64,000 bases of DNA from Zarea fungicola (taxonomy: Eukaryota; Ascomycota; Sordariomycetes; Hypocreales; Cordycipitaceae): positions 111,577 through 175,576 of the forward strand of contig FWCC01000181.1 in the NCBI GenBank assembly GCA_900169235.1. Direction: 5' to 3'. Below are positions 2,159-63,543 of the stretch, piece after piece (within the stretch, counting starts at the first letter, position 1; every line of letters starts with the position of its first letter). The translations under genes and the position numbers were made by a program. The notes beneath the pieces were generated by a model, which saw only the letters and a list, made by a program, of their open reading frames with translations, was not told the DNA's origin and searched no databases.

Positions 2159-3371
2159 AAGCGAGGGTTTGCCTGCATGAAAACGTAAGGGGGACGAAGC
2201 AGAATTAGAGAACCATGCATGCAGAGTACACAAAGAAAAAGAATGGCGGAGAGGAGAGAAGAAGGAACTTTGGCATGAGAATTGATGGGAAACGATGGGA
2301 ATTTCTTTTTACACAAGTTTTAATCATTGGAGTTGTGGACAGGGCCAAAGATGAACATAGATAAATTCAAAGATATAAAAACAATACCCCGAAAAGAAGG
2401 AACTTGCGCAGAAAATTTTGTATAAACACGACATGGCCATGAGAATATGAAAGTGATGTGCTCGAGTATCTGATGTACAGGAAATGAAACATATTACACA
2501 CAAACAAACATGAGTATTTTAGTATTTATGCGTTGGTCTGTCCCATATATTGTCCCTATCGGTTGGCCTAAAAGGTTCACTAAATGAAGAGGCGTAATAC
2601 GACTGGTAGTGAGCAGTGCTGCAACCCGAGAGCTGTTTAATCAGTCGTCGTCCATCCATCCACTTATGCTGTGCAGTCAAGAAGCTAGATTGTCCATACG
2701 CACAGTGATGGAATTCAAACGTGCAGAAAGCCGATACTGTATTTTATTAATACCAAGTGGTAGGAAATTGGCAGAATTAAGAATCTTAAAAATGAAATTA
2801 AGGGAACTAGCAGAAGTAAGGAGATAAGAAAATGAAGAAGATTAAGAAGATTAAGAGAATTAAATAATTTAAAAGAAAAGTACGAGTGCATTCCATATAT
2901 TATTATACAGCGGCAAATCCTACTCCCAAACTCGATTAAAACAGCACATATCGCTGTGTAGGACCTCACCAAAAACAAGCAAGCCGAAGCTTTCACCAAA
3001 GTCAAGGAAACCTTTATCCAGGCACTGATTAACATATTGCTGCCAAGGCACCTTTAAAAAAACAAACGCTGTAGAGGATCAAGCTTGCCCACTTCCAATC
3101 CAATCCCGAATCCAAATCCAAATCCAAATCCAACTCCAAGACACGCTTTATCCAAAAATACATAATAATACAGGATATCGTAAAAATAAAAAGTTTCCAA
3201 CTCCACCCATATCAAAGAGACACCAACCATGCCAGGGACCTAGAAGGCATATGTTGAATGCTAGGGATATCCGGCCACGGCTGGGTATTGCTTGATCTTT
3301 TTAAGTCTCTGTGTTCGAGTGGTTACCTAGCACCCTTGTCCTTACAAACCAGGACAAGATGTATTCAACGC
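2159..3371. other. Intergenic stretch between convergent genes
   Basis: Convergent 3' ends of exportin-T and the repeat protein. No credible gene is seen; short ORFs here are AT-rich and low-complexity. It contains an (AATCCA)n simple repeat at about 3095-3137. Confidence 0.6.
3095..3137. repeat. Short tandem repeat, 6-bp unit AATCCA
   Basis: The unit AATCCA repeats about seven times with a few changes. It lies in the intergenic space downstream of exportin-T and has no visible coding role. Confidence 0.8.
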
Positions 3372-36578: not shown

Positions 36579-38325
36579 ATGTCGTCTGCAATTACCTCTC
36601 AGGTATGCATTGAAAAATTGAACCCAGCAGACCATCGAGCCCAAGAAAACCACACAAATCGCACTCTGGCCCCTTTGCCGCACCAATAGGGAAGGAAAAA
36701 GGCCTACGAGCATACACGCCGTTCGCAAAACCGCCCAAATGTCTGTCGAAAAATCCACCAGTTGCCTTGAATCGCTTTGCATGATTTTGGAGGTATAAAA
36801 GGGATTCCTTTTGATGGACTTTTGGACAGGAGCGCGTATTCGGCGTTGGAAATACCACCCAGACGATTTTGACTCGGCTTTTTGGCTTTTTGGCTTTCTC
36901 CACGTTGAATTTTGAGCTAACCTGTGCGCTCCCTCTACAGAACCGATTCGCCTACTTTGGTACGCCCCCGATGCCCTATGCACCTGCAGCATTCGTTCGA
37001 CAGAGCCTCTCATCTCGATCGAAATCGCTCCATGCTTCCATTCCAACATTTTAGCGCTCGAAAAGTATTGTACTGACCCAGCACCGCTTCTCAGGCAACG
37101 ACGATGACGGCGAAGCCAAGCCCAACGTCCCCGTCAAGACCGTTGACAAGGCCTCTACCCACACCACCAAGCGCAATGTCGAGCCCCAGGCTCCTGTAAG
37201 ACCTGCTGGTGCTACTGGCAACCGCCGTGGCGGCCCTGCTGGCAGCGAGGGTGGTAAGTCGTTGGCATCAACTCGACTTCGGTCTGCCATTTGTCGCGCA
37301 TGTGCACTTCGCCGGAATCATGTCTAACCCTACATTTCCAGCTTTCCGCGATCGCAACGCTGGTAGCTCCCGCAACCAGGCCCGCTCCACTGATGAGGCA
37401 CCCCGTGACGGCCCTCGCGGTGGTGCTGGTGCCCGCGGCCGTGGTGGTAAGTTTTTCTTGTACTATGCCCCAAGGACATCCTGCTTTCGCTTTTGTCCTC
37501 ACAGCCGCAATAGAAGCTCCAGTACACAAATATGATTGCAGTACTAATACTATTTTCAGGTCGTGGTGGCCGCCGCCCTCGTGACCAGGATGACCGTCAC
37601 TCCCGCCAGGACCGAGAGTAAGCTATCCAGTCCATGTTGCAAATTTGTAGGCTTCATGACAGTTTGGCTAACCAAATTAACACAGCACCACTGCCAAGCA
37701 GACCGCTCAGGGCTGGGGCTCAAACGAGGGTAAGGCTGAGCTCAAGGACGAGCAGGCCGGCGAGGCTATTGCCGAGGGCGAGAAGAACGTCGCCACAGAG
37801 GCTGAGGCTGAGCCCGCCGAGCCCGAGGACAAGAGCCTTTCGTACTCTGACTACCTCGCCCAACAGGCCGAGAAGAAGCTTGCTCTTGGCGGCCACAACG
37901 TCCGTGAGGCCAACGAGGGTAGCAAGCTCGACAAGAAGTGGGCTGGTGCTAAGGCCCTCGAGAACGACGAGGAGGAGTACGTCTCTGGCTCTGCCGGCAA
38001 GAAGCTCCGCGAGCGTGAGCGCAAGGTCAAGCAGACCATTGACTTTGACCCTCGCTTTGTCGAGTCTGAGCGTCCTCGTGGCGGTGCCCGTGGCGGCCGC
38101 GGCGGTGCTCGCGGTGGTGACCGTGGCGACCGTGGCGACCGTGGCGACCGTGGCGACCGTGCTGAGCGTGGCGACCGTGGTGGCCGCGGAGGCGAGCGCG
38201 GTGCCCGTGGCGGCGACCGTGGTGGTGCTCGCGGTGGTGCCCGTGGTGGTGCCCGCGGTGGCCGCCCTACTGGTGCCAACATCAACACCAAGGACGAGTC
38301 TGCCTTCCCTAGCCTCGGCAAATAA
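36579..38325 (+). CDS. STM1/SERBP1-type ribosome- and RNA-binding protein
   Basis: Six exons were pieced together: 36579-36602, 36941-36959, 37095-37253, 37342-37446, 37560-37617 and 37686-38325. They sum to 1,005 nt, an exact 334-residue frame. The N-terminus MSSAITSQNRFAYFGNDDDG is the start typical of the Stm1/Hyaluronan-mRNA-binding family. RGG-type Arg/Gly stretches are followed by the family core (LSYSDYLAQQAEKKLALGGH, NEGSKLDKKW, KKLRERERKVKQTIDFDPRF), a long RGG/GDR low-complexity tract and the conserved end INTKDESAFPSLGK. Yeast Stm1 clamps idle 80S ribosomes and helps translation recovery. The true frame has few ATGs, and a longer shadow frame (37634-38380) runs across it. The first intron is 338 nt, long for this window. 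Confidence 0.92.
38080..38265 (+). repeat. RGG/GDR-coding tandem repeat in the STM1-like gene
   Basis: A 9-bp unit close to GGCGACCGT is repeated in tandem, with interspersed GGTGGTGCC-like units. It encodes RGDRGDRGDR and GGARGG, typical RNA-binding RGG sequence. Confidence 0.85.
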
Positions 38326-39392
38326 GCGACCTATCGCCCCAATCCCTCGTACTCCCGATTGGCTGTCGCTCTGTTACTAGCATGGCGCTCAAGTATCTTG
38401 ATGGAAATACGCTCCTGACACTAAAGCTCAGCGAGGCAACTAGAATAAGGTTGCTGGGATAAAAGAAGAGGGCATAATACTGGTTCGCGAGGTGGAATGC
38501 ATCATTGAAACCGAGGTACATTCTATTTGATGAGGTCGATTTTCCAATCATATGGCTCCTCATCTGTGGAGTTTCCACGCTTCTATGGCGATTCTTCATC
38601 TCCTCTCTCCCCCTTCACGCAAGATTAAAAGACGGGAAAATGGTGAGAGCACAAAAGAAAAAAAATTGCAAGGAAAAGGATAAAGGAACTTTAAAGGGCT
38701 TGAGGGGAATCAAGTACGGAAAAAGGATATTTGGGCTTTTCGAAATGTTGAGACGTATCTCTGGACCAACAAAGACAGGTCTTCTTTTTTTTATTTTACC
38801 CATTTTCAATGAGACCGCAGCACCCTCTGCGTTTCTTAAGGTTTCCTTCTTTCTTTATTTGAACAAAAAAATCTACTTAGGTCTACTGGTTTGCGGGTTT
38901 TTAGTCTTGATGTTACTTCGTTTAAAGAAAAAGAAAGTCTTGGTTTGCCATCTGTCAGTATATGCTGGGCTGTGAGTGTATTGAAATGTACGAGTAGCTT
39001 TGTCCAGTTGACCAGTCAGGTATTCCGTGCATGGCAGGTATCCGCGGGGTTGACGGAACGCATGCGAAGCACAGCTAATTCTGTTTGTAACGGGGGACAA
39101 CGCTGGACCATTGATGTACAATTTGAAAAGGTGCGTCAGTAAGTGAAGTCACTGAATGGGCGTGTTAATGCAGTTACACGTTTTGGGTTTGCACTCCGAA
39201 CGATTAATATAATATCATATCAACTGCTGTTGAACAAAGTATCAAAAGATTTGACATTGCATACAGGGTAGGATGTTAAAAATGGGGATGATCTCAGTTT
39301 CACACCCAAAAACAGTTCAGTACTTACATGGCCAAAAACCTGTTACCCGTATAACCAGAATTAAGGACAAACTAAACTCCATCAATTAATAT
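38326..39392. other. Intergenic, no protein gene seen
   Basis: About 1.1 kb between the STM1-like gene and tRNA-Arg. A 156-codon ORF (38505-38975) is rich in Lys and Phe from A/T runs and is taken as chance. Confidence 0.5.
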
Positions 39393-40184: not shown

Positions 40185-41128
40185 TCACTCGTCGGCCGAC
40201 TTACCCAGCGTTGGATGCGTTAGAATCGGACCTGACAAATCCGGAATGTAGTTATCTTTGGACCATGCCATCAAACTGTCCCAATTCACACACTGATGTT
40301 CCGTCTGCATCCCTGGCCACGGCCATCGATAGTCGTCCTTCCAGTGGTAGGTGTGCATCGACACGTCGCCGTGGCACATGAGCACCTGGCGGAGCAGATC
40401 CACACAGTGGTCGAAGTGCTCACGTTGCTTCTCGATGGGATTTGGGTTCGGGTAGTAGTCTGAGTAGTAGGATTTGCGGATTTTGTTGACGCAGTGAAGT
40501 GTGTGGAAGACGTCGAGGCTGACGAGGTAACCGCCCTCGTCGTCACTAAGGGGCACTGAAGAAATATTGGCCTTTTCAAGGTCGTCTTTTTGCACGCGGA
40601 GGTTATTGTCTAAGAACGAATTTTATTGTTAGCACACCCAGAAGGAGATAAAAAAGGAAAGGGAAGTACTCGATCCGGGTGCATACACGTCAGAAGACCC
40701 TCCCACGCCTCATCTTGTTCTGGTCGTGGAGGACCCCTGTATTTGCCATTTTCGGCCAGGTTGTGAACAATCATTTGCTTCTCATATTTTAAACCTGCTT
40801 TCGCCGGCGCTGTCATAAATTGTCAGCATTGAATTCCCCTCTGGTAGATGTGATATGATGTTTTCTTACAATGAATCGCACCATTCTCACATTCACACTT
40901 TCTCGCATTTATCCTCGCACTCCATAAAAATAATAAAATTGTAACAACACCATAAAAGACAATAGCAGAAATGTGCATGTAAGTCTTTAATCTTTTGTTT
41001 CGTTTTGATGTGGCAGATGGTAACGAATGCAACAACTTCTCCTGCGTTTCCTCGACGCTGAGCAGACTTTCCGAATCCAGTGAGTCTGTAGGATCATGGT
41101 CCTTTGCCGAATATCGTTCCGAATACAT
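40185..41128 (-). CDS. UstYa-family (DUF3328) oxidative-cyclisation protein A
   Basis: Three exons, 40870-41128, 40687-40809 and 40185-40609, give 268 residues. The order is a short cytosolic N-terminus, one membrane segment (residues about 51-70, MHISAIVFYGVVTILLFLWS), then a lumenal domain with two HxxHC motifs: HTLHC (about 163-167, in DVFHTLHCVNKIR) and HFDHC (about 192-196, in EHFDHCVDLLRQ). These paired motifs define the UstYa family, whose members catalyse oxidative crosslinking of fungal RiPP core peptides (ustiloxin UstYa/Yb, asperipin AprY). It lies about 730 bp downstream of, and on the same strand as, the repeat precursor gene. The intron positions match those of the second UstYa-type gene, including a middle exon of 123 nt. 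The ATG at 41128 begins MYSERYSAKDHD; the frame stays open upstream without a better start. Confidence 0.9.
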
Positions 41129-41855
41129 TATCACGAGGACAAAAAAAACCCAAAAAAATGTAAAAATAAGAAAAGTCTCCCCGGTAAAGGTCCGGCGAGG
41201 TCGATGCTCGAATGTTTTGAAATACCAGGAGAAAGATGCAATTGCAGTATGTACAACGTAATGGAATAAGTGGCTAGAGCAGCACCGACGCACTGTGCCG
41301 TTAGTGCTGACTGCTCCAGGCTCTAGCGGCAGCAGCTTTTCGAAGGATTCGATCTGCAACTATGCACTCAAAACGGGGCATGTTTGTTTGGAATGCAAGG
41401 TTACATTAAAAGAGCTTTCCCGATGACAGAACTTTAACTCACTAGTGAGACATTATAGTGGCTCGCCGTTTGAGGCCTGCTGGCTGATACCCCAACCTTG
41501 TGCAGTTGGCTACTTTCGGCCGACTGCCATCCGGTGTTTTCATCAAATGTTCACCACTCCATCATATCGGGTGACTGAGTGACTTTTCGTATTCATAAAA
41601 TTCAAGGAAGCAAGGGAAAAAATAAAAAGAAATGGGGATTTAACTATTCTGGTATGCAAGGGCTTAGATCCACACACGTTTTGATTTTTTACGGCGAGAG
41701 ATAGACGTCGATTTAATAGGTAGTATTTTTCAGTACTCTACATGTCTTTTTTTTGGGCACTTGGAGTATACAAGTGGTGATAGTCTATAAAAAACTTCAT
41801 GATACCTTCCTTAATCTACCCTATGAGTCTGATAGTTGAACCAGCCATTGTGTAT
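41129..41855. other. Spacer between UstYa-type gene A and the precursor gene
   Basis: About 730 bp holding the promoter of UstYa-type gene A and the 3' region of the precursor gene. It is AT-rich near 41,580-41,800. No gene is seen. Confidence 0.5.
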
Positions 41856-42443
41856 TTACTCCTCAGCGCGCTTTCCCCAGCCAGCACCGTTGTTGTAAAG
41901 GATATCGCCGTTCTGCTTGACAGTGCGCTTTTCCTCGCTCTCCTCAGAGCGCTTTCCCCAACCAGCGCCGTTATTGTAGAGAATATCACCGTTTTGCTTG
42001 ACAGTACGCTTGCCCCAACCGGCGCCGTTGTTGTAAAGAATGTCGCCGTTCTGCTTAACAGTGCGCTTATACTCGGTGTCATCCTCAGAGCGCTTTCCCC
42101 AACCAGCAGGGTTGTTGTAAAGAATGTCGCCATTCTGCTTCACGGTGCGCTTCTCCTCATCTTCGGAACGCTTTCCCCAACCGGCAGGGTTGTTGTAAAG
42201 AATATCACCGTTTTGCTTCACGGTGCGCTTCTCCTCATCCTCGGAGCGCTTTCCCCAACCGGCAGGGTTGTTGTAAAGAATATCGCCGTTTTGCTTGACA
42301 GTGCGCTTTCCCCATCCAGCACCATTGTTGTACAAGATATCACCGTTCTGGTGGACGGTACGCTTGTCGGCCGCCTCGGGCTGAACTGGAGCAGCCAGGG
42401 CCGCGCCAAAAAGGGCAAAGGTAAGAGGAAGGGTAAACTTCAT
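41856..42443 (-). CDS. Kex2-processed repeat peptide precursor (candidate dikaritin-type RiPP)
   Basis: A single-exon gene of 195 residues. A signal peptide (MKFTLPLTFALFGAALAAPV) is followed by a short pro-region ending in Lys-Arg at 27-28. Seven copies of a 17-residue peptide follow, at residues 29-45, 48-64, 74-90, 100-116, 128-144, 147-163 and 174-190. The consensus is TVKQNGDILYNN[GP]AGWG; copy 1 has H for K. Every copy is flanked by KR. Acidic spacers (SEDEE, SEDEE, SEDDTEY, SEESEE) separate some copies, while 1-2 and 5-6 are joined by KR alone. The last copy is followed by KR-AEE. Copies 2-4 have Pro and 1, 5, 6 and 7 have Gly at position 13. This layout is that of ustiloxin, asperipin and epichloecyclin precursors. 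Flanking UstYa-type genes support a crosslinked peptide product. A pheromone-like precursor is the alternative. The ATG before the signal peptide is used. Confidence 0.93.
   Translation of the reverse strand: MKFTLPLTFALFGAALAAPVQPEAADKRTVHQNGDILYNNGAGWGKRTVKQNGDILYNNPAGWGKRSEDEEKRTVKQNGDILYNNPAGWGKRSEDEEKRTVKQNGDILYNNPAGWGKRSEDDTEYKRTVKQNGDILYNNGAGWGKRTVKQNGDILYNNGAGWGKRSEESEEKRTVKQNGDILYNNGAGWGKRAEE
41865..42362 (-). repeat. Seven-copy peptide-coding repeat of the precursor gene
   Basis: Each unit is 51 bp of core plus KR codons, with optional acidic spacer of 5-7 codons and a second KR. Copies differ at many third codon positions while the peptide stays almost the same. Confidence 0.9.
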
Positions 42444-44840
42444 GATGGCTTGTTTTTGTAGGTCTTGTGGACCGAGTAGATGGAGTTTCTTTTGGTGATG
42501 AGTAAATGAATTGAGTTTAACGAATATCTCTTTCATAAGGACTTGCGTGGAAATGTTAGATATCTATAACATTACATGAATACCAAGGCGGTAAGCGAGA
42601 GCCTCAAGTCCGGAACGTTGCAATGCAACGGTGGCGGAATCCTGCCTGACACTTGCGATAGATGATCAATGCCGTGTTGGCAACTCCTCAAGGTGGGGGT
42701 ATCTAGTTGGAGAAAAGATGGACATTTCTGATCCTCCGAGAGGGGGAGGGGCTCTGTGTCAGACTCTCTGTTCAAATTCAGCTGTGACTGCCGACGGGGG
42801 GATGACTGGGGCGAGCCAGGTCGGTATCATTGCTCATCATTGCTCATCAAGCAAAACGATGACAGCCATCTATCGGTTACAGATATTTCACAACTTGCTT
42901 CACCAATTTAAAGTAAATTTAGTTGAAGGTAGATTATACGCCTATTTGAAGACTCCTTGGTATAATTTCGAGGTCAGGCACAAGCCACACACTCCTGGCA
43001 TGCTGTGTGGATGGATTTACTAGTCAAAGTATGGAATAAATCACCGAGCTGGTGCCTTAGGAACCAAGAGTTGTTAGAATAAACACTGGAAAGCATATGC
43101 AGGATGTATGTCAACAACATATGTCCTGGATTGGACGGCCTCGCACATCAGGCTGTGTAAGTGCTTCGTCATACGTAGTATCAAATAGCAACTACCGATG
43201 CCTATGACCCATGACCCACGCAAATCGACACGTTGCGACTCACACGGGAGTCGGATATCCCTCGTAGCAATCCGATTTATTTTGCGTACAGGCCGTCCTC
43301 AATGCAGGAGGCCGGGCAGTAAGCTTTTGCTGTGACAAAAGACCCAACGTATGGCATGACAACGAATTAGTTGGGATCATAAATTTCTGTAAAGCTATTC
43401 TCAAACCAAATTATAAAACCTAATCATCGCCGTACCATAAAGTAATGAGTGATGTAATTCGTTTCCAGGTCATCTTCTTGCAACATCGACTACTGTATAG
43501 TTTTACTCAAGCTAAAACTATTTATGGGGCAGGCTGTACATGGCGCTTGCCTGAAAGAGTCAATGAATACGAAAATAGCCAATGGGGGCCAGGCACTAAC
43601 CGGGACTGTGAAGGCGTAGGGCTCCATTGATACCCAGCTGATAGCCAGGTGGCTGCGATTTCGTTTAACCGTCTCACGCGGAGACTAATACTTACGAACT
43701 AGAAAAAAACAGGTTGCATTTGAGGAGAGATGGGCACTGGGCATTCCAAATCGGAGGGTTCATTCATGGCTTCAGATGCCGAGATGCTCGGCAATGGAAA
43801 AGCCTATTTCATTGGTAGTTCCAAGAGCCTGGTCCAAGTTATAAGCACTAAATTCGGAGTGCAAGTGGGATCCCTGCACTACACACTTTGAGGCTCCCCG
43901 CCATGCCCGCCTTGTCGTTGCCCAGCTGGCCCATGATGCAATCCCCGCAATCCTCATGAATTCAGGCTCTATGGGGAAAAAGCATTCTTCTGAGAAGCCA
44001 TCCGTCCGTCCGGCTCACTATGAAATACCCCGCTTTACCTTTTCGTTGGATATTCCAGCCCCCGTTTAGCTATCGAACTCCGCCCAAACTGGCCCCCACC
44101 AACTGGCAATTGCCTCAGATATGGTCTCTCCTTGGTTTCGGCTGATTCAGTATAGAACTGCCCCGCCTTATTCTGTCGGTAGATATGGTGTAAATTGAGA
44201 TTGTTAGCCCCCACCATGTGTTTATATATGTGACACTTTGTCAACTAGAGCCAGCTGCCATTGGTGGCCAAAAGACGGAGAACCTCACAACTAAGAACAC
44301 GACGGAAATGTATATTACCTTTTTAAATCGTACAGTCAAACTCGCCAGTCAAATTAAAGACTATGATGCCATATTTAAAAACCTTCCCTTATGATGTGAT
44401 CAAGAAGAGGTAAAAATGATAAATGAGTTAAGGTCGGCAACTAGAGTATTTCTCGTACGTGAGAACTATCTTGTTGGCAGCCAACTCAATAGAGTAACGT
44501 AGCTGTAAGACATTGGGGAAAACACTAGTCGATTACACACTTGTGAATTTGAAAGACATGTAACATTCTCAAAGAAATGCAACCTTGCCGGAGGATTTGG
44601 CCATGACGCCACGAGCGCCAAGGCTCGTGATTTTGCCTTGCTGTTCACACAGTATGCAGCATACAGTACGGGATAGCCCCACTAGACCCAGAGCCGCTTA
44701 CACTTGGTTTTCTCGGTTTGACAGAGTAATTCAGTATTATTGTGTGTAAAGTATTCAAGCTGGGCATCAACTTGAAATTTTTTTTTTCAAGAAAATAACT
44801 GAATAACGTATTTTCCCATCTTTTTTTGAGTCTCACCAAG
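42444..44840. promoter_or_regulatory. 2.4 kb divergent intergenic region in the candidate RiPP locus
   Basis: This lies between the divergent precursor gene and UstYa-type gene B, so both promoters are here. TATA-like sequence on the minus strand occurs near 42,556-42,572, just over 100 bp upstream of the precursor ATG. ORFs are short and none shows HxxHC motifs or another recognisable domain. Confidence 0.45.
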
Positions 44841-45826
44841 ATGGCACGTGCAGAAACAGATCGAGCCTCCGATGAAGTTCCATTTCTGGCCGATGAGGAA
44901 AAAATCAGCTTCCAAGTTCCAAAGAGGCGCTTAAGACGAGAGAAATGGGCACATTTCTTACCATATTCTGCTATTCTAAACGCGTTGCTTTTCCTGGTGC
45001 TCGTTGCCACCTGGGGTACGCAACGATATCATTCAAAAAAGGCATACATTCCCAACGAAATATACTGTAAGCAGCCCATAAACCGTTCTGTCTTTACATA
45101 AAATGATGGCTTTCTAACATATAAAAAGCACCCGCACATTCTGTGGTTGAATATGAAACTGTAGTTTTTACCGGTGGTCTGAAAGGCGACCCCTCCAAGT
45201 TCATTGGCTATTCGGAGGCTGTAGACGACGCATGGGATGAACTTTACAACCGTTTGTTCCACCCTTTGACCACTTCAAAAAGAAGCGTACAAAAATGCTG
45301 ACTCCATGGACTTATAGAAGTATTGATATCCCAAATTGACGCCGAGTCTGCTTCAAAGCTGCCCAATGCCACCACACCCTTCGACAAGGACCCTAATCAC
45401 TACATTGTGGAACTCGACGTCTTCCATCAGCTGCACTGCCTGAACATGCTACGCCAGTTGGTATACCCCTCTGCATACAAAATCGACTTGAACTCCAGCT
45501 CACAAGAGGGGGCTGAGAACATCTTTCACATGGAGCACTGCTACGAGCAGCTGAGACAGTCGCTCCAGTGCTCCTCGGACGTGAGCACGATTGCCTGGTC
45601 TTGGAGCGAGAAGAGGCAGAGAATGGTTGGTAATGTCGGATCCACGCATACGTGTAGGAACTTTGAGAAGATTCGAGACTGGGCAGTAAAGAACAAGGCC
45701 CAGACGGACTTGGACTTTTATGTGCACGTAAAGGGGGCGCCGCTGTTCCACGACAAGGACGGGATACCGGTGCTCCACGACATGGGCTCTTCGCATCACC
45801 ACCACAAGGGGGCTTCACAGCCATAG
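44841..45826 (+). CDS. UstYa-family (DUF3328) oxidative-cyclisation protein B
   Basis: Three exons, 44841-45066, 45129-45251 and 45318-45826, give 285 residues. After a basic cytosolic tail comes one membrane segment (about 40-59, LPYSAILNALLFLVLVATWG). The lumenal part starts with IYSPAHSVVEYETVVFTGGL, a typical UstYa opening, then AWDELYN. Both motifs are present: HQLHC (153-157, in DVFHQLHCLNML) and HMEHC (187-191, in HMEHCYEQLRQS). The second intron uses a GTTTGT donor, unusual but needed to keep frame. The C-terminus has a HHHH run. It is divergent from the precursor gene and convergent with the third UstYa-like gene. It probably works on the same peptide in the secretory pathway; this is inferred from family and location. 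Confidence 0.9.
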
Positions 45827-45985
45827 AAGAGCCATGGATCTCAGAATTAATGATTGTTTTTGTAATATACAAGCTGCTTCTCTGAGAGTCGTATCACACT
45901 AGAAGAATAACGATAGAGTAGTACTGGGAGATAGCTGAATGCGAACTCTGGCGATGCTCATGTGTAAATTTGCAACTCTAAATAT

Positions 45986-46660
45986 CTATTTTGCACACTT
46001 TGGATACTTGACAAAGATTCTAGTTCCAGAGTCCTTTGGACCCTCTGGATGTCCTCCAATCATCTTGACGCAGTGGCTTGTATGGTGATAGTTGGCCGTG
46101 TATGTATCCAGCTCCAGCGTGGGGTCCAGCAGGATTCTGTGCAGCCGTTTCCAGACGTACATGCAGTGTGTGACATGCCAGTCAAACGTTGTCTTAAAGT
46201 TTCCATAGTCACCGGCACCAAGCTCATCCATGGTTAGATTCTTGCCCTCTGCGATTTCATAGGGCCAGTGCCGCCCGTGGTACATGTCTTTTGCGTCTTG
46301 GGCGTCGGCCTCGGTGAGGCAGGAAGGGGGCAGCCACGAGTGGAGGACGATACTGTATTGGCACCCTCGTGCCATTGCATCTTCAGGTGAGTTGCCACAA
46401 TCACCATGAGACCAGGCCAACGGGAGACCAGTGTCAGGATCGGAGCCGTTGGCAGCATGAGGTATGTTGCGAGCGTGCGGTACTGGCTTCATCATCAAAG
46501 ACGAGTAGAGAACCAAGAGCGCTCCCATTGAGACGATGCCGAGGATGAAGGAGCTTAACATTGGAACCCATCTTCGTTGCTGCTTCAAAGGAACTTGACG
46601 GTCCTCGCCATAGTCGCTGATGTGGTCGTCGACTTGGGCGTACTTTATCTTGTCTGCCAT
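45986..46660 (-). CDS. Divergent UstYa-like membrane protein C
   Basis: An intron-free gene of 224 residues starting at MADKIKYAQVDD. A single membrane segment lies at about 32-54. The lumenal part has a different pattern from A and B: a cysteine-bearing GCQYSIVLHSWLPPSC region, then two HxxHC motifs, HVTHC (162-166, in FDWHVTHCMYVW) and HTSHC (193-197, in YHHTSHCVKMIG). The spacing, paired motifs and topology fit the UstYa superfamily, but sequence otherwise differs, placing it in a separate subgroup. It converges on UstYa-type gene B with about 160 bp between stops. It may carry out a second oxidation on the peptide (ustiloxin clusters carry two such proteins); this is inference. Confidence 0.82.
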   Translation of the reverse strand: MADKIKYAQVDDHISDYGEDRQVPLKQQRRWVPMLSSFILGIVSMGALLVLYSSLMMKPVPHARNIPHAANGSDPDTGLPLAWSHGDCGNSPEDAMARGCQYSIVLHSWLPPSCLTEADAQDAKDMYHGRHWPYEIAEGKNLTMDELGAGDYGNFKTTFDWHVTHCMYVWKRLHRILLDPTLELDTYTANYHHTSHCVKMIGGHPEGPKDSGTRIFVKYPKCAK

Positions 46661-53300: not shown

Positions 53301-55822
53301 CAATCTTTTGGTCAGCTTCGTACTGCAGATAACAGTTCCCCTGGCAGATAAGATGGACGGCAGCGGAGCGTCTTTCTTCTGGCACCAGATAGTACAATCT
53401 TGATATATGCTACAATGAGGCGGCGGAGTACCTCCTAGTGGCCAGCCAGCCGGAAAGGCGTTAATAGGGCGTAGCCCAATCAGAGCGATTTGTGGCAATT
53501 CTTACCACTGAACATGCCTTTACTAAGACGGACATTACGAACCTGTGAAAAAGTATTATCAACTAGGATTTTGCGCATCTAGTTATACGGGACCCCGCGG
53601 CCTGTCGCAGCTGTCAACGCGACTAGGGTGAGTTTTCGGCGCCAAGCAAGTGAGGACTGGAGCCTAAATCCTACTCGTGCTACACTACAGACTACAGGTA
53701 GCGCGACGTCGAGTAGCCTTCGTATTGCACGGTGATGAGCTCTACTTGTTGGGCGAAGGCGTACCAGTAGACCTAGAGGCTGCCGTGCCAACACGCCGGC
53801 TGGTAGCTGCTGTGGGTGGCTAATAATAAAGCCATGCGCCGTTCTCCAAAAGATGGTCCCTGTGGGACAAGAGCTGTAGCCCGGTTGGTCGCTATCGAAC
53901 TTGCCCATGTGTGTCGCGCGAGGAACCTTTGACGCTGCGGCTGCCAACGTGGTTGCCCCCCGCTGTCACGTAGTAGCGTACACGTCTGGGATGCATACAT
54001 GCGGACATATGTAGCTTGTTCGGAGTAGCAGTTCCCCATCTCTTTAGTGATATTTTAAGGGTAAGCCTCCATTCCATGCATTTCTGCTCCATGTGGCTGC
54101 CAGAAGCCAGTTGTTGTGGGGTGAATAGATTAAGCCTGTATGTACCCCATGGGCCTCCTCTGTAGCCTGGCTGGTTGGGGCAGCGGGTCGTTTACCACTG
54201 GGAGCTTGAAGTTTGGGGCATGTCACCGATGGCTTGTTTTTGTTTTGCATGCTAAAAAGTGTTTGTCACTTGTCTGGTATTTTTTTGGGGGCGGGATTGC
54301 ACGGCATGTTAGTGACTCTATACTGTAATGGATGTTCCCGATGATCGCTCCGCGTTGCAGCCTTGTAAAGGTCGGTCAGAGGCAAGATACGAGAGAGACG
54401 CGAATACAGAACAATCAATCATGCTACTCACAGATTTCGAGTTCAGTCAGGAAATCTCTTCTGGTTCTCCAAATTCTGACCCAGGCCCGGGAGACTTTGT
54501 TAGCGTGCAGCCAGTCATGGGACGGGGGCCGGGCTAGTACGAAAATGGCGAATCCCCCTATTTTGTTCCAAGCTAAAACCACCCCCCCAACTCAGCCTAA
54601 AATATGTATTTAGATGAATAGGGTGCGTTGCAACGGCCTTGGAGGAATTTGGTTGCATGGCGTGGCGAGTTAGGTATTGATTGCATTGATTGGAGCAGTT
54701 GGAGGAGATGAAATGAGGCGGGAGACCAGGTACTGCTGGAGTGAACCTAGGAATATGGTACAGACAGGTGTACATTGGGCAAAGTAGCTGTGCTCAGTAA
54801 TCTGCGCTTAGTGCAATAGGGCTATAGCAGTCTTAGTACCTAAAAGCACGTTGAAAGTACTAAAAATTAGCGCACTAGGAATAGCAGCCCTCCACAGCAA
54901 CTACAGCCCTGAAAAGGTGACAGTATCTACGGCACAGCTGCCACTAAGTAGGTAAGTAGCCTGCTAACTATACTTGTTCAGTAATTGTGCCGAAAACATT
55001 GTATTTTGCTGGTGCAAACCTAATAATACTCTGTACCTGCCTTACTGCTTCAACAGGTACATACATGTACATTGCTTGCAAGGTACATCACATACACTCG
55101 TTATCGTAAATGAACTTTTTCATATCTTCCTCACTACATCGCCACTTTGTCACACTCATACCAGCAAGAAACTTCATCAAGTGCAAGCAACCTTCCTGCG
55201 CTCGCCATGGCTGCCTCACCTGCAAACGCAGAAGCCCGCCAAGTGGCATGTACCAGTAGGCTCGGATGGTTTTGACGCTCCGCCGCATGCCCCATCCAGC
55301 GAGCAACCGTCCATCCTCCTACCATTGATAGTGCCATCCATCCATCGACCTAGCCTAACTTTGCTGATGGCCGTCCCGTCCGTCCATTCAGCAGCCAGCT
55401 AAACCCAGCACCCACCCTAAATGAGTCAGCCACAAAACGCAGCCTATTGTTGCAATTCGCAGCCCCTGGTGCCTCTCTGCTCCGGATACCACCCTCCACT
55501 GTCCACTTGTCTGCTCCACTACCACGACTCTGGTGTGCCATCCCTCGTCCGTCTTTCTCCATCTTTTACTCGCAGCGTTGCAGGGCCGCTTGGTGGCGTT
55601 GTTGTGGTGCCCCGTCCACCCAAGCTCGTGTGAGCGCCCACCTCTTTGTGAGACGCCAGCCCTTCTTTTCTGAGATATAAGGGTCTCTCCCCCGACCTCT
55701 AGCCTCATTGCTGCTTCCCTGTGTCTTTGATCTCACTGTCCATCCAGCACCTAGTCACTTCTTTGACGCCTCGACCTCACTGGAGCCAGATACCCCGGAT
55801 CCTCGACAACAAACGGCCCATC

Positions 55823-57405
55823 ATGTCTGACGAGCATAAGGAAACCGCCGTGGACTCCAAGGAGTTGGCCGCTCAGCATGGAGAAGACACTTACCAGGAT
55901 ACCTACAATGGTGCTCCCCCACCCCGTCCTGAGGGTTGGATGTACAAGAGCTTCTCGCCTTTTGGCAAGAGACTGGAAATGTGGTATGCCTCGCCCAAGT
56001 TCCAGCTGCTCCTGATCTCCATGGTTTGCTTTCTCTGCCCTGGCATGTTTAATGCCCTTTCTGGCCTCGGCGGTGGTGGTCTCGACGCGCAGCATCAGTG
56101 GGTTGGTGCCAACGCGAGTGTTGCGCTTTACTCTACCTTTGCTGTCTTTGGTTTCTTCGCCGGTACTATTACCAACCGTCTTGGTATTCGACCTGCTCTT
56201 GCCTTTGGTGGTCTTGGCTACTGCATCTATGCAGCTGCTTTCCTCTGCTTCAAGCACACGCAGAACATTGGGTTTGTCTACTTTTCAGGCGCCTTCCTTG
56301 GTGCTTGTGCCGGTATCCTCTGGTGCGCCCAAGGTGCCATCATGATGTCCTACCCTCGCGAAGCATCCAAGGGTCGATACATCTCCGTCTTTTGGATCAT
56401 TTTCAACCTGGGTGGCTCCATTGGATCGATGGTAAGTCTCATCACAGATACTGTGCGCTTAACACGCTCTAAGTCTTCAAATAGATTCCTCTCGCGCAGG
56501 CGGCTAACAACAAGGATGCCACAACTGCTTCGGACGGTGTCTACGCCGCTTTCATCGTCCTCATGGCCTTGGGTTCCGCCCTCTCCTTCAGTCTCTGCAA
56601 TGCCGACAAGGTTATTCGTGAAGACGGCAGCAAAGTCATCCTGATGAAGAATCCCACTTGGTGGTCGGAGCTTAAGGGTCTCTGGGAGACCATGTACGCC
56701 GCACCATGGGTGCTTTTGCTCTTTCCCATGTTCTTCTGCTCCAACGTTTTCTACACATACCAGCAGAATGTCGTCAACGGCGCAACGTTCAACGCCCGTT
56801 CCCGAGCCCTGAACGGCCTGCTCTACTGGCTCGCACAGATCTTTGGTGCAATCGTCAATGGATTTGCTTTGGACTACAAGGGCGTCCGTCGCTCCACTCG
56901 TGCCCGCGCCTCTTTCGTCTGGCTCGTTGTCGTCTCATTCGGTGTCTGGGGCGGTGGTTATGCTTGGCAGAAGTACCAGCCCACTCGCAAATGGCGAGGG
57001 GATCACCCAGATGAGAACCTCATTGACTGGTCTGAGGGTAGCAGGTTCCTTGAGCCCATGTTTCTGTACTTCTTCTACGGCATGTATGATGCCATCTGGC
57101 AGACTTGCATCTACTGGTACATGGGTGCCCTTTCCAACTCTGGCCGCAAGGCTGCCAACTTGGCCGGTTTTTACAAGGGCATTCAGTCCGCTGGTGCGGC
57201 TATCTTCTGGCGTCTCGACGGTCAGAAGGTCGAATTCAACACCATCTTTGGTGCCACATGGGGTATCCTGTCTGCAGCTCTCCTCATCGCCTCCCCTGTC
57301 ATTCTGTTTAAGATTAAGGACCACGTTTCTGTGGAGGAGGATCTAAAGTTCTCTGACGAAACTATTGAGGATGTCCTGCCCACCCAGAAGCACGTCGATG
57401 CTTAA
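55823..57405 (+). CDS. UNC93-like major facilitator superfamily membrane protein
   Basis: Two exons, 55823-56431 and 56485-57405, join in phase 0 and give 509 residues. A hydrophilic N-terminus of about 60 residues precedes about eleven or twelve membrane segments. Family landmarks are the first helix FQLLLISMVCFLCPGMFNAL, followed by SGLGGGG, then the GxxLGI loop (TNRLGIRPALAFGGLGYCIY) and the LGACAGILWCAQGAIMMSYP helix characteristic of fungal UNC93-like proteins. Substrate is unknown; the animal founder regulates a potassium channel, but fungal members are generally annotated as transporters. The ATG at 55823 is chosen over the longer frame from 55721 because it starts the typical charged tail and the upstream segment looks like pyrimidine-rich leader. 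Confidence 0.9.
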
Positions 57406-57794
57406 ATGGTTGACGCTGAGTACTGAGTATTGTATTTATTCTTGGAATGAGATGCAAATGGATTTCTTTCGATTTTCAGCCTGTTCAACGTTGGGAAACA
57501 ATTTGTTCGCTTCTTATTGTTTATAATATAGCTGGTTTCTGCATGGTTGCTACAGCATTCTGCACATTTACTTTAATTTTAAGTAGACAATATACCCTGC
57601 TTAGCTTCTACCCCATCCTGACTGTGACTGAGCTCTTAAATCAATTATCAAATGTGTGGCTAAGCCCATGGGGTAATAAATCAATCGGATTCTGGAAAAG
57701 AGCACACTTTGATAGTTGCTTAATAACGGTCTGTGATATAATACAGAGTAGAGATAAAAGAGAGTAAGTATTTAAATACACGACCCCACATAGA
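57406..57794. other. Convergent 3' intergenic region
   Basis: AT-rich 390 bp between the UNC93-like and hydrolase genes. No gene is seen. Confidence 0.6.
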
Positions 57795-58916
57795 TTATTT
57801 GTTCAATTCCTCCTTGCCTTGCTCAGTCTTCCCACGCATCAAATCAAGAAAGGCTGCCTCGGCGTGATCTCCCATGGTGTAATGTGTATCGCTGCCAAAT
57901 TCACAGAGCTCAGCGTTAGGCAGCTTCTCCGCCAAGTAGCGAATCGCTTCAATCGGCGCGTTGACGTCTTTGGTCCCATGCCAGATCTTGATTGGCGTAT
58001 CCCGATACGTTACATCCTCGAGACGGAAGCCCCAATCCTCGTCAGTGAGTATGCGAGCCTCTTGAACGGCGCCGTCTGGCCCCTGCGCAAACGGCTCGCC
58101 AATTAGCAGGTCAAGAAGCGCCTCACGCTGCTCGCTCACGGGCCGTTTGTCGTCTGGTGCGGTCACAAGACTAGGTTTGGTCGAAGGGTCCTCCTTGAGC
58201 TGCCTTTCCATTTTCTCGCGCGCTTGCTTGTTGACGAGCTCCAGCCAGGCATCGAGGCGCGTGGTGACGAATCGGGTGCGCACAATCCAGCGGACGAGGC
58301 CGAGCGTCACGGAGGTAAGGGCGCTGAGCAGACCGGGACACCGGTTGGCGAGAACGCTGAGGATGCGGCGCGATCGTGTCATGTAGTGCCGTCCCGCGGC
58401 CCAGGGCGGCGCGCCAGCAAAGAGCCCAACCCCGGTGAGCATCCCCCGCGGAAGCGCATGCGCGCATGCAACCGCAAATGGCCCACCGCCCGAGGTACCC
58501 AGCACGGCGAAGCGCTGCAGTCCTTGGTTCTCGGCAAAGGCTGCGACGTCGCGGGGCCAGTCGAGGAGAACACGGCGAGGACGCTGGGGCGTCGAGAGGC
58601 CGTACCCTGGGCGATCGAGGGCGAGGAGCCGGACCGAGTGTGCGAGGGCAAGTTTGTGTAGTGCCTTGGCCTCGATGCGCGAAGAAGGGTAGCCGTGAAA
58701 GTAGAGGAGCGTATCGCGGCCGTGAGGGTCACCATACTCTGCGAAGCCGAGTTTGCGGCCGTCGCTGAGGGTAATGGTTTGATTGTGCGCCAGGTTGGTG
58801 GCATCATCCGACGCTGTCATTTTGACTCGGGGGGTTGAATTTGAGATGGCTGTACTGTTTCTAGAAACCTGTCTTCTAGAGACTTGTAGCAGTCCTCGTG
58901 GCGCCCTTGCTGCCAT
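57795..58916 (-). CDS. Alpha/beta hydrolase fold protein
   Basis: A single exon of 373 residues. The fold is shown by the oxyanion segment H74-G75-Y-P-S-S-R, the strand-loop ALDRPGYGLSTP, the nucleophile elbow G140-T-S142-G-G144 (Ser142), the acid D317 (GTKDVNAP) and the histidine H345 (DTHYTMGDH). A cap region of about 100 residues lies between the elbow and the acid. The N-terminus (MAARAPRGLLQVSRRQVSRN) is Arg/Ser-rich without acidic residues and could be a mitochondrial targeting sequence; an alternative start at MTASDD (33 residues in) would lack it. Substrate cannot be deduced; the HGxPSSR form is found in epoxide-hydrolase- and esterase-like members. Confidence 0.9.
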   Translation of the reverse strand: MAARAPRGLLQVSRRQVSRNSTAISNSTPRVKMTASDDATNLAHNQTITLSDGRKLGFAEYGDPHGRDTLLYFHGYPSSRIEAKALHKLALAHSVRLLALDRPGYGLSTPQRPRRVLLDWPRDVAAFAENQGLQRFAVLGTSGGGPFAVACAHALPRGMLTGVGLFAGAPPWAAGRHYMTRSRRILSVLANRCPGLLSALTSVTLGLVRWIVRTRFVTTRLDAWLELVNKQAREKMERQLKEDPSTKPSLVTAPDDKRPVSEQREALLDLLIGEPFAQGPDGAVQEARILTDEDWGFRLEDVTYRDTPIKIWHGTKDVNAPIEAIRYLAEKLPNAELCEFGSDTHYTMGDHAEAAFLDLMRGKTEQGKEELNK

Positions 58917-59744
58917 TACCGTATGCCCTTGCTTGTGACAGTGTAGGTAGGTTGGTGTAAGTCGGTGTACGCTTGACTTCAATCGTCAATCTATTGTGGC
59001 AATGAGTAAGTAGAAATGCTACTATGAAATGGAAATGAATGAGAAAAAGCCTGGTCTGCGTGTTTGAAATGGCCATGAGATGAAATAATGCATTTATATG
59101 TCAAGAGAAATCGCAAGGTCCGATTTGTTCTCTGGCTCGTATCAAACTACACAGCCGTAGCGCATGGTACAGCCTAATCAGGTAAGGCCTGGTCATTCAT
59201 GTGGGGCCGATTATGATTCGCGAGCCTGGTTGGAGCGCCCACTGCATGAGGATATGTAAGCAAACTGCCAATGAGCCTAAGCCAAAGCTCCTAAGTGATT
59301 GACTCGGAAACTGTTTTTTGTGGGAAATGTTACACTAGTGGGTGTAAAAAGTGTCTTTATTTTTGCTTGCTAAATTATTAGAAAAATGGGGGTCATTAGT
59401 GTGACGCATGTGGCTAGTGCGACTGTCCCTTGGTAGCTGGTAGGCAGCTGCTGCAAGGCTCACAGAGAGCGAAACCATCTTACTGGTAGATTAATCGCCA
59501 TTTGAATTATATTACAAACTTCTTATTTTTTTTTTATTTTTTAATTTATTTTTTAATTTTTTTTTTTTTTACCTATATATAGTTATTCGTATTAAATTTA
59601 AACTTAAAAAGTTTACTTATACAAACGGTGCAGCTAGGCTACTCGCTTCCCTGAACGACTACTATAATACTAATATTTTTGGCCCTAGGCAGGCATCATG
59701 GTATGCACCCATGACTGTAATCCTTTGCAACTTCTTCATCATAC
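58917..59744. other. Intergenic with AT-rich tract
   Basis: About 830 bp upstream of the hydrolase and downstream of the next minus-strand gene. It contains a strongly AT-rich poly-T/ATTTT stretch at about 59,520-59,600. No gene is seen. Confidence 0.55.
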
Positions 59745-61187: not shown

Positions 61188-63543
61188 TGCCTTTGTGTTA
61201 GGAAAGAATGCCAGATATCTAGGCCGGTACCAGCATGTCAAATTGAGCTATGATACGGCTTAATCGATCATCGCAGAAGATGGAATGAATGGAACGCGTG
61301 GTAAGGCTGAGAAAGCTTTGCGCGGCGTAGCGCCTGCGCTAGAAGTGAGGACTTTTGATATCTTCACCCTTTTTCGTACTGTTCAAAAGCTCACGTGCTT
61401 ATCCCAAAAAAAATTACTGGACCAGGCAGGGGGGAGACATCTTCCACGAATAGAGGAACGTTTTACAAAAAAATCAGGCTGTGTGTGGAGTGTAGCGCGT
61501 GGAGTGTCCCGTTGAACCTCCGGTCCAAGACCACGATACGGATACTAACAACATGTCGGGAAAAAGATATCAAAAGTAATGACTTAATGGCATATAACTT
61601 CTCGGGCTCTTGATAATGGTTGTCTGTTTTGATTCAGAGTGTTTTTAGGTCAGAAACATTGAAAAGCACACAGAAACGAAAGCTCTTGGCAAACAGAATA
61701 AGTACAGGGGTTCAACTTTACCCGTGTGAGGCTGAATCGTGACAGGTTTCATCTGGCAAACTTAAAATTTACCTCAACACAGACTGTGATTAGGTCATTC
61801 GTGCTACCGAATTGTCCGAGACAGTCTGTGCCAGTAGCAGATTCCTGGCCGTTCGGAGTTGCGCCAATCTTCTGTTCTGTCTAAGTCCGTATTGCTTGAT
61901 CTATGACTTTGTTGATTCAGCGTGAAGGGTTGGAGCAGGGCATTTGCTGTTAAAGGTGTCTCTTTCTAGCATGCATGACTCTACTGGGAGACCCATCAAG
62001 GCCGCTAGCCCGTCAGCGAAACCAACTGTGCCGGGCATGTTAGATCCATTGCGTCCACCCGAGAGCTCTGGCTGTTTATTGAATGCAGTCTGGGCAGCAC
62101 ATACAATAACGTGAACACGTGGCCTAATCGAGCTGCTGTGGATTTCTGTCCAGTTCTATGAGCAGTAACCTTTTCTTTTTTCTTTTTTTTTTGCCGCCGG
62201 TCATATTTCTTGAGCGTTGTTGATGATCGAATTTTAATCGTTTGAGAGAAAGGCACTTTGGTTTATGTAGAAGTCATTTAGGCATAGGGTTGCTGCCTGG
62301 CACCACTTTTCCAGGGGCAGGAATGCTAATTCCCGCCATGTATGCGCCATCTTGCCACTAAATTATGCGATCTCAGCTGAGGTCAAATTACTGTTATGAC
62401 TTGTAAAAATGATACGTGGGTTGAGAGTAGGCCTAGGCGCGCCTATAAAAGGCAATCTTTGGTTATTTGAAGCCATAAAATATTTCCAACGAGCAATTTC
62501 GACGTATATCGGAATACTTTAGTTTGCAGGGGCGATACGTAACTATACAAAAGTAACATCCAGAAATGGCCCTTCGTTGTTTGCTCAAAGACGTCGAGGT
62601 GAACTTATGGCGGGGCAGAAGGTACAACACTGGTTCCTCCAGAGGAGCCAGTGCTGCGCCACACCGTACGGCTGTCACTATTTTTCTAAATTCCCCCTAC
62701 TCCGTACTCTCCAAGCAGTTCAACCCGCAGCGTAATTCAAAATTGGTGGAAGCACGACTGAACTGCGTTGTTGCAGTGATGGCCAACACTGTAACCGGGG
62801 TTCCAATTAGATTGCGGGGTTTCGGCGAGAAAATAGGAAGAATCGCAAAGAAGCTTCCGTGCAACTACAGCTACATAGTTAGGAACTGGGTTTGGAGGCC
62901 GCGTTTTAGGGGAGACAGGCCGCAGATCACGCTTTCAGGTTTAGATCTCCCATGCCTTGTCAACCGCCATCCACAGCACCAGCCTGTCTATCAAACCCCT
63001 ACCATACAAGCTATAAAGGTACCTAATTAATAAATTAGCAAGCAAGTCAGCCAGCAAGTCAACCAGCAAGTCAACCAGCAAATCAACCAGCAAATCAACC
63101 AGCAAATCAACCAGCAAATCAACCAGCGAGTAACCAGCAAGTAACCGGTAAGTCATGTAGTATGCCACCCAGCAAGTCACCTAGCAAGCCACCCAGCAGG
63201 TCAGCCAGTAAGTTAGCAACCTTAGCCAGCAGTTCAGAAGCTTATGGAAGGTGCTAAATATGTACTAGGTAGTTAGGTACTGATATAGATACATCCTTTG
63301 TTAAGAAGTTTGTCGGAGTTCTCTGTCTAGAGTATATTGTAGACTTTTAGAAATATGAGGCTGTGATAGGCTAGATTTCGGAACTAAACCTAAAATCGTG
63401 AAAGACGGTCTGCATCTACCAAAATGCGGACCGCGCAAAAAACCGGCCGTCACAGGTCTTGGTGAGGAAAACACCAACCAGCAGAGAAGCAATTAAAAGG
63501 GAACTGTATATATAAAAGTTAGCGAAATTTTTCCGTCCAATTA
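61188..63543. other. 2.4 kb without a recognisable protein gene
   Basis: This separates the membrane protein gene from tRNA-Ile. ORFs (for example 62566-63030, +) have no recognisable content; that one includes an inverted repeat GGTACAACACTGGTTCCTCC / GGAGCCAGTGCTG-like stretch near 62,620-62,660. A 12-bp minisatellite lies at 63036-63218. Confidence 0.5.
63036..63218. repeat. Minisatellite, 12-bp unit AGCAAATCAACC
   Basis: About fifteen units, nearly identical in the centre (63060-63125, AGCAA[AG]TCAACC) and decaying on both sides to AGCAAGTCAGCC, AGCAAGCCACCC and similar. The minus strand reads as a repetitive Val-Asp-Leu-Leu frame, which is an artefact of the 12-bp period. Confidence 0.9.

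What the first reader, a model, noticed from the sequence alone, without database searches (positions are those of the whole stretch)
40185..46660. Compact candidate RiPP locus: seven-repeat precursor with three UstYa-type proteins
Seen: a secreted precursor with seven Kex2-bounded 17-residue peptides, and three single-pass membrane proteins each with two HxxHC motifs within 6.5 kb. Known: UstYa-family proteins crosslink core peptides in ustiloxin, phomopsin, asperipin-2a and epichloecyclin pathways, whose precursors have the same layout. Inferred: this locus makes a new crosslinked peptide; the repeated core matches none of the dikaritin cores I know.
Basis: partly seen in the sequence, partly recalled or inferred. 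Interest (0 to 1): 0.93.

Follow-up and report, generated by a model that had tools for sequence, protein, structure and literature searches.

The report
Fungal repeat-peptide locus with UstYa enzymes
A fungus related to the mushroom parasite Zarea fungicola carries a small gene group that most likely cuts a repeated secreted protein into short peptides and chemically modifies them; the kind of locus is known, but this peptide family and one of its enzyme types look undescribed.

Summary
The minus-strand precursor (42443-41859) has a signal-like start and seven 17-residue cores, TV(H/K)QNGDILYNN(G/P)AGWG, each followed by KR. The repeats differ mostly at silent sites (pN/pS 0.08). Three flanking membrane proteins each carry two HxxHC motifs. 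Two are clear UstYa proteins (PF11807, 189 and 163 bits). The third is not: it belongs to a separate HxxHC family with weak UstYa similarity. The window lies in a 43-Mb fungal genome, Zarea fungicola or a sibling. That genome holds a second locus with a related precursor and relatives of both UstYa proteins. In eight precursors, all 33 core units carry DILY-x4-GWG. UstYa2 and the third protein have neighbouring locus tags in seven other fungi. Best reading: a UstYa-type RiPP locus (dikaritin/epichloecyclin-like) making a Tyr/Trp-containing peptide oxidised at conserved residues. Crosslinking is inferred, not shown. Kex2-repeat precursors near UstYa genes are a known kind (1758 counted in PMC7329392), so this is a new member; the uncharacterised partner protein is the freshest part.

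The parts
41859..42443 (-). Precursor gene: signal-like N-terminus MKFTLPLTFALFGAALAAPV, then seven cores TV(H/K)QNGDILYNN(G/P)AGWG-KR with acidic spacers
   Evidence: eight homologues found; paralogue on C439
41868..42359 (-). Seven-core repeat region
40185..41128 (-). UstYa1, PF11807; HTLHC and HFDHC motifs; exons 41128-40870, 40809-40687, 40609-40185 (splice sites inferred)
   Evidence: (188.8 bits)
44841..45826 (+). UstYa2, PF11807; HQLHC and HMEHC motifs; exons 44841-45066, 45129-45251, 45318-45826 (splice sites inferred)
   Evidence: (163.2 bits)
45986..46660 (-). Third HxxHC membrane protein ('UstYa3' here): HVTHC and HTSHC motifs, separate family, no Pfam match of its own

Best explanation
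This is a compact fungal RiPP locus of the Kex2-repeat plus UstYa kind. Shown from sequence: a repeated precursor under protein-level selection, two PF11807 UstYa genes and one divergent HxxHC protein, together in 6.5 kb. Inferred: the precursor enters the secretory pathway and the membrane-anchored UstYa-type oxidases modify the cores in the Golgi/ER. A kexin cuts after each KR, carboxypeptidases trim the basic ends, and peptides built on DILY-x4-GWG are secreted. Most likely UstYa1 and UstYa2 form an oxidative side-chain link at the invariant Tyr, with Ile/Leu or Trp as partner. The third protein probably does a further oxidation on the YNN-type cores or acts as partner of UstYa2. The biological role is unknown; the producer's relatives parasitise other fungi and arthropods (recalled), so an extracellular role toward hosts or competitors is plausible but untested.
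For: Repeats coding, pN/pS 0.078. PF11807 at 188.8 and 163.2 bits. Searched with residues 1-118, the 43-Mb genome gave one other strong precursor match (C439, E 1.9e-21; a further row at E 0.58 is ignored); it lies about 1.1 kb from a UstYa2 relative and 2.6 kb from a UstYa1 relative (start codons read). UstYa1 and its C439 counterpart pair at 59% identity, support 99/94, in a tree of 24 rows (9 of the genome's own proteins, 15 homologues). DILY-x4-GWG in 33 of 33 cores from 8 precursors. That count's pattern itself demanded DIL and GWG, so one search repeated it by splitting at K+R without a pattern: all Trp of the 8 precursors lie in GWG, and only signal regions and spacers lack the motif. 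P0006, identical to the C439 protein, and P0008, whose repeats are degenerate, are left out. Of the 8 precursor hits, three (P0001, P0002 and the degenerate P0008) share an exact contig length with a homologue of the third protein. Neighbouring locus tags place UstYa2 and the third protein side by side in Cordyceps militaris, Lecanicillium saksenae, Fusarium heterosporum, F. sarcochroum, Fusarium sp. NRRL 66182, Cladobotryum mycophilum and Conoideocrella luteorostrata. One kexin-type P-domain hit in the genome. In PMC7329392, 65.6% of repeat sequences of precursors with DUF3328 neighbours contain Y, against 38.2% without (passages).
Against: No expression, mass or product data. The C439 locus lacks a third-protein relative, so that protein is not essential to the kind. 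None of the 8 precursor hits shares a contig length with a UstYa2 homologue. UstYa proteins elsewhere also desaturate residues (PMC10512285 passages), so a crosslink is not the only option. Shared sequence motifs between the two loci do not exceed the range of shuffled controls.
Confidence: 0.8

Rival explanations
1. The precursor yields unmodified secreted signalling peptides, like alpha-type pheromones, and the UstYa genes act on something else.
For: 1758 of 7878 Kex2-repeat proteins in PMC7329392 had a UstYa-type neighbour, so most (6120) did not; pheromone precursors share the layout (passages).
Against: Precursor and two UstYa genes recur together at C439; in PMC7329392 all but three precursors annotated as alpha-factors or pheromones lacked such neighbours (abstract passage); the core resembles no pheromone that I recall.
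Confidence: 0.12
2. The UstYa-type proteins desaturate, hydroxylate or otherwise oxidise the cores without any crosslink.
For: Three UstYa homologues of phomopsin biosynthesis are essential for desaturation as well as cyclisation (PMC10512285 passage).
Against: Invariant I and Y in the core fit the Tyr-Ile links of known members (PMC9233826 passages); this is indirect.
Confidence: 0.25
3. The third protein belongs to a separate pathway and only UstYa1, UstYa2 and the precursor form the locus.
For: It has no relative at C439 and no Pfam match.
Against: By exact contig length, 19 of 61 UstYa2 homologues share a contig with a homologue of the third protein, and 3 of 8 precursor hits do; 5 of its 8 genome paralogues lie within 3 kb of a PF11807 hit.
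Confidence: 0.15

Closest known systems
Dikaritins (ustiloxin, phomopsin, asperipin-2a)
   Same: Signal peptide plus Kex2-bounded repeats; adjacent UstYa (DUF3328/PF11807) genes; Tyr in the core (PMC10512285, PMC9233826, PMC7329392 passages)
   Different: Core is DILY-x4-GWG, not the YXIX core of ustiloxin/phomopsin; Trp invariant. In the 26 other window frames scanned (a choice, mostly, not all) no tyrosinase or P450 domain appeared; an MFS transporter frame and an alpha/beta-hydrolase frame lie 9 kb or more beyond the third gene
Epichloecyclins (gigA)
   Same: Repeated Kex2 precursor; Tyr-Ile links with Ile before Tyr (PMC9233826 passage), the same order as I-L-Y here
   Different: Epichloecyclins are nonapeptides with an N-terminal Ile; here the Kex2-bounded unit is 17 residues, Ile is internal and the unit ends in GWG
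Kex2-processed repeat proteins with DUF3328 neighbours (Umemura 2020, PMC7329392)
   Same: Same general arrangement; 1758 such precursors counted there
   Different: Whether this core type is among their listed types was not checked (supplements and figures not seen)

Membership tests
Dikaritin-type RiPP locus | Precursor with signal peptide and repeated cores bounded by Kex2 sites | tested here: met
   Seven cores each followed by KR; signal peptide judged by eye only
Dikaritin-type RiPP locus | UstYa homologue gene(s) beside the precursor | tested here: met
   PF11807 188.8 and 163.2 bits, cut-off 25
Dikaritin-type RiPP locus | A kexin in the genome | tested here: met
   One P_proprotein hit, 102.2 bits, C183, in an 887-aa frame; identity as Kex2 inferred
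Dikaritin-type RiPP locus | Cyclised product derived from the core | not testable with these tools
   Needs LC-MS/MS
Ustiloxin/phomopsin subtype | YXIX core | tested here: not met
   No Y-x-I in the window precursor; the order is I-L-Y in 33 of 33 cores of 8 precursors
Epichloecyclin | Cyclic nonapeptide core | tested here: inconclusive
   17-residue unit; final trimming unknown
UstYa protein family PF11807 (third protein) | Score above the Pfam cut-off | tested here: not met
   No match for the window protein; 11 of 32 relatives match PF11807 at E up to 0.1, best 3e-6
UstYa protein family PF11807 (third protein) | Single N-terminal membrane helix and two HxxHC motifs | tested here: met
   helix topology from model and by eye. 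Profile comparison with UstYa2 aligns only the HxxHC region, probability 20

The most novel reading that the evidence does not exclude
UstYa2 and the third protein are a conserved two-part oxidase spread through Hypocreales and beyond, in which an unnamed HxxHC family outside PF11807 supplies half of the chemistry, and the DILY-x4-GWG cores carry a Tyr-Trp side-chain link not yet seen in fungal RiPPs.
Probability: 0.12. Interest if true: 0.72.

Novelty: new member of a known kind. Interest (0 to 1): 0.45.

Why it matters
It gives a compact system (one precursor, three candidate enzymes) with a natural control: a paralogous locus that lacks the third protein and has changed core positions (YFMPV against YNNPA). 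It also points to a conserved HxxHC family beyond PF11807 that a mining rule resting on PF11807 alone would miss (inference).

Tried and rejected
Shared k-mers between non-coding parts of the two loci: within the range of shuffled controls. Foldseek of the third protein against PDB: no match with E up to 0.001. No solved relative by sequence at E up to 1 for either family. The UstYa2-relative model (mean pLDDT 64.9) was judged too weak and was not searched. NCBIfam: nothing above cut-off for the third protein and the precursor. The weak Pfam names on the precursor (EVI2A, TDP-43_N and others) are below their cut-offs; rejected as effects of the repeats. The antisense frame across the precursor (41784-42458 plus) was not pursued, since selection favours the minus frame. 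Recent cluster duplication is disfavoured: UstYa2 and its C439 relative are each nearer by identity to other species (77% to Fusarium sarcochroum; 79% to Akanthomyces lecanii) than to each other (64%, where the tree leaves UstYa2 itself unresolved). In one search I set aside, as low complexity or alternative frames, two rows of L026, the second frame of L032, two frames of L042 and window 37622-38377. The 'hits' for DILYNN look like the personal name Dilynn; the listed GWGKR papers are unrelated by title.
Full report
Observation. The reported genes are present at the reported coordinates. The minus-strand ORF 42443-41859 starts MKFTLPLTFALFGAALAAPVQPEAADKR and continues with seven cores TV(H/K)QNGDILYNN(G/P)AGWG, each followed by KR, with acidic spacers (SEDEEKR and similar) after cores 2, 3, 4 and 6. 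Tandem Repeats Finder reports the array independently. Between repeats, silent codon differences outnumber replacement ones 142 to 18 (summed over the 21 pairs), and pN/pS is 0.078. Three stop-to-stop frames of at least 90 aa in the window hold two H..HC motifs: the three neighbours.

The enzymes. With introns placed at splice-site-like positions by me, UstYa1 (268 aa) and UstYa2 (285 aa) match PF11807 over nearly the whole profile (188.8 and 163.2 bits; cut-off 25). The third protein (224 aa) matches nothing in Pfam at E up to 0.1 and is absent from the 55 PF11807 matches of the genome. Of 32 family members scanned, 11 match PF11807 weakly, best E 3e-6. A profile comparison with UstYa2 (alignment A2, which also held UstYa1) aligns only the HxxHC region (49 columns, probability 20, E 0.0011). 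In its family both motifs are invariant or nearly so, and four cysteines outside them are invariant (32 sequences). Its model (mean pLDDT 80.2) has one long N-terminal helix, residues 31-56, and an ordered domain, with no PDB match at E up to 0.001. It is UstYa-like in layout but not shown to be a UstYa family member.

Host. The window is part of a 43.1-Mb, 456-contig genome. The third protein is 99% identical to Zarea fungicola NQ176_g5483; Z. fungicola is in Cordycipitaceae, Hypocreales. The genome's C439 precursor differs visibly from the annotated Z. fungicola one (112 against 120 aa), so a sibling strain or species is possible. That Z. fungicola parasitises cultivated mushrooms (as Lecanicillium fungicola) is recalled.

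A second locus. Searching the genome with residues 1-118 of the precursor gave four rows: two are the window gene, one is C439:48909-49241 (E 1.9e-21), and one is at chance level (E 0.58). The C439 precursor has three cores (NPDILYFMPVGWG twice, NPDILYFNSAGWG once) and less regular Kex2 spacing: its first core has no KR before it, and its third follows a spacer with no KR between. Next to it, at about 50.3-51.3 kb and 51.9-52.9 kb, stand relatives of UstYa2 (64% over 150 aa) and UstYa1 (59% over 138 aa). UstYa1 and its counterpart form a supported pair (99/94) in a tree of 24 rows that holds 9 proteins of this genome, not all of its UstYa genes; only 5 of 21 inner branches are well supported. 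UstYa2 and its counterpart are each closer by identity to proteins of other species. The duplication is thus old, or one copy came by another route. No third-protein relative was found on C439.

Relatives elsewhere. The protein search found eight precursor relatives, among them Z. fungicola NQ176_g11097 and Cordyceps javanica IF1G_07775; the other six carry no species name. It scored only the 7990 candidates sharing most words, so others may exist. In 33 cores from eight precursors (the window's, the C439 one, P0001-P0005 and P0007), D, I, L, Y, G, W and G are invariant and the spacing is constant. The pattern used there demanded DIL and GWG, so I repeated the check by splitting at K+R with no pattern: only signal regions and acidic or short spacers lack the motif, and all Trp of these precursors lie in GWG. 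P0006 (identical to the C439 protein) and P0008 (repeats degenerate, as if frameshifted) were left out; P0008 has DIL twice but DILY never and GWG once. In the window, P0001, P0002, P0003 and P0004 each unit is exactly 17 residues with YNN; in C439, P0005 and P0007 the cores are YF-type and the units vary.

UstYa2 and the third protein carry consecutive locus tags in Cordyceps militaris, Lecanicillium saksenae, three Fusarium species, Cladobotryum mycophilum and Conoideocrella luteorostrata. By exact contig length, 19 of 61 UstYa2 homologues share a contig with one of 80 third-protein homologues; of the 8 precursor hits, three (P0001, P0002, P0008; the first two YNN-type, P0008 degenerate with one readable NN core) do so with a third-protein homologue, and none with a UstYa2 homologue. 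Equal contig length is an indirect sign of one contig. The zero may come from introns breaking gene calls and from the strict cut-off (1e-40); this is inference. In the own genome, 5 of the 8 paralogues of the third protein lie within 3 kb of a PF11807 hit, 3 have none listed on their contig.

Other repeat precursors here. In the UstYa-related stretches fetched (20, three on C439) and the window, a repeat screen found, besides the window and C439 genes, Kex2-type repeat ORFs at C144, C157, C162 and C163, each near a PF11807 hit. The arrangement thus occurs at six or more places in this genome.

Mechanism. The best reading is the known route: secretion, kexin cleavage at KR (one kexin-type P-domain hit), trimming, and oxidation by membrane-anchored UstYa-type enzymes. 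The copper dependence of a DUF3328 enzyme is known to me here only from the title of a reference (Chiang et al. 2025, listed in PMC12186524; that paper is not held). Which residues are linked is not shown. In ustiloxin and phomopsin an N-terminal Tyr is linked to Ile; in epichloecyclins the Ile stands before the Tyr (PMC9233826 passages). The I-L-Y order here resembles the latter, and the invariant Trp is a second candidate.

Literature. I saw passages of PMC7329392, the outline and sections 9 and 10 of PMC7099791, and passages of PMC12142624, PMC10989895, PMC10512285, PMC12186524, PMC6339444, PMC13123250 and PMC9233826. The motif search found 23 papers, of which 20 were listed, none about such a peptide by title; six locus tags of relatives or neighbours gave no paper. 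The other searches were judged by titles and the starts of abstracts, and searches listed only 25 of 900 and 15 of 347 papers; I saw no description of this locus. Figures and supplements were not seen, so an entry in a survey remains possible.

Verdict. A real and conserved UstYa-type RiPP locus; the product family and the third protein's family appear undescribed in what I could search, the kind itself is known.

Noticed in passing
L028 (C162:92001-102000) 6492-6836 +: Five EPY(S/G)AYGN(W/F) repeats, four followed by KR, near a PF11807 hit in the same genome.
   Followed up: partly
L042 (C163:48001-58000) 6867-7376 +: Ten YIAYGA repeats, nine followed by KR, near a PF11807 hit.
   Followed up: partly
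L029 (C144:228001-238000) 2844-3392 -: Repeats VDPHKVDPHNRFW, mostly followed by KK, behind a signal-like start, in another frame than the screen flagged, near a PF11807 hit.
   Followed up: partly
L032 (C157:118001-123872) 3742-4044 -: Three KR-HKY(S/N)VSAKEADA repeats behind a signal-like start, near a UstYa exon.
   Followed up: partly
window 55703-58985: An MFS transporter frame (PF07690, 56.5 bits) and an alpha/beta-hydrolase frame (PF00561, 35 bits) lie 9-12 kb beyond the third gene; membership in the locus not tested.
   Followed up: no
window 3902-4536: 57/87-bp DNA repeats inside a 630-aa minus-strand frame (3375-5264) with no Pfam match at E up to 0.01.
   Followed up: no
window 63041-63213: 12-bp tandem repeat AGCAAGTCAACC, 14.6 copies.
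   Followed up: no
window 44841-45826 against other species: UstYa2 is closer by identity to Fusarium sarcochroum, Purpureocillium and Thozetella proteins (77-78%) than to Cordyceps or Beauveria ones (57-64%), which hints at patchy inheritance or transfer (tree unresolved there).
   Followed up: no
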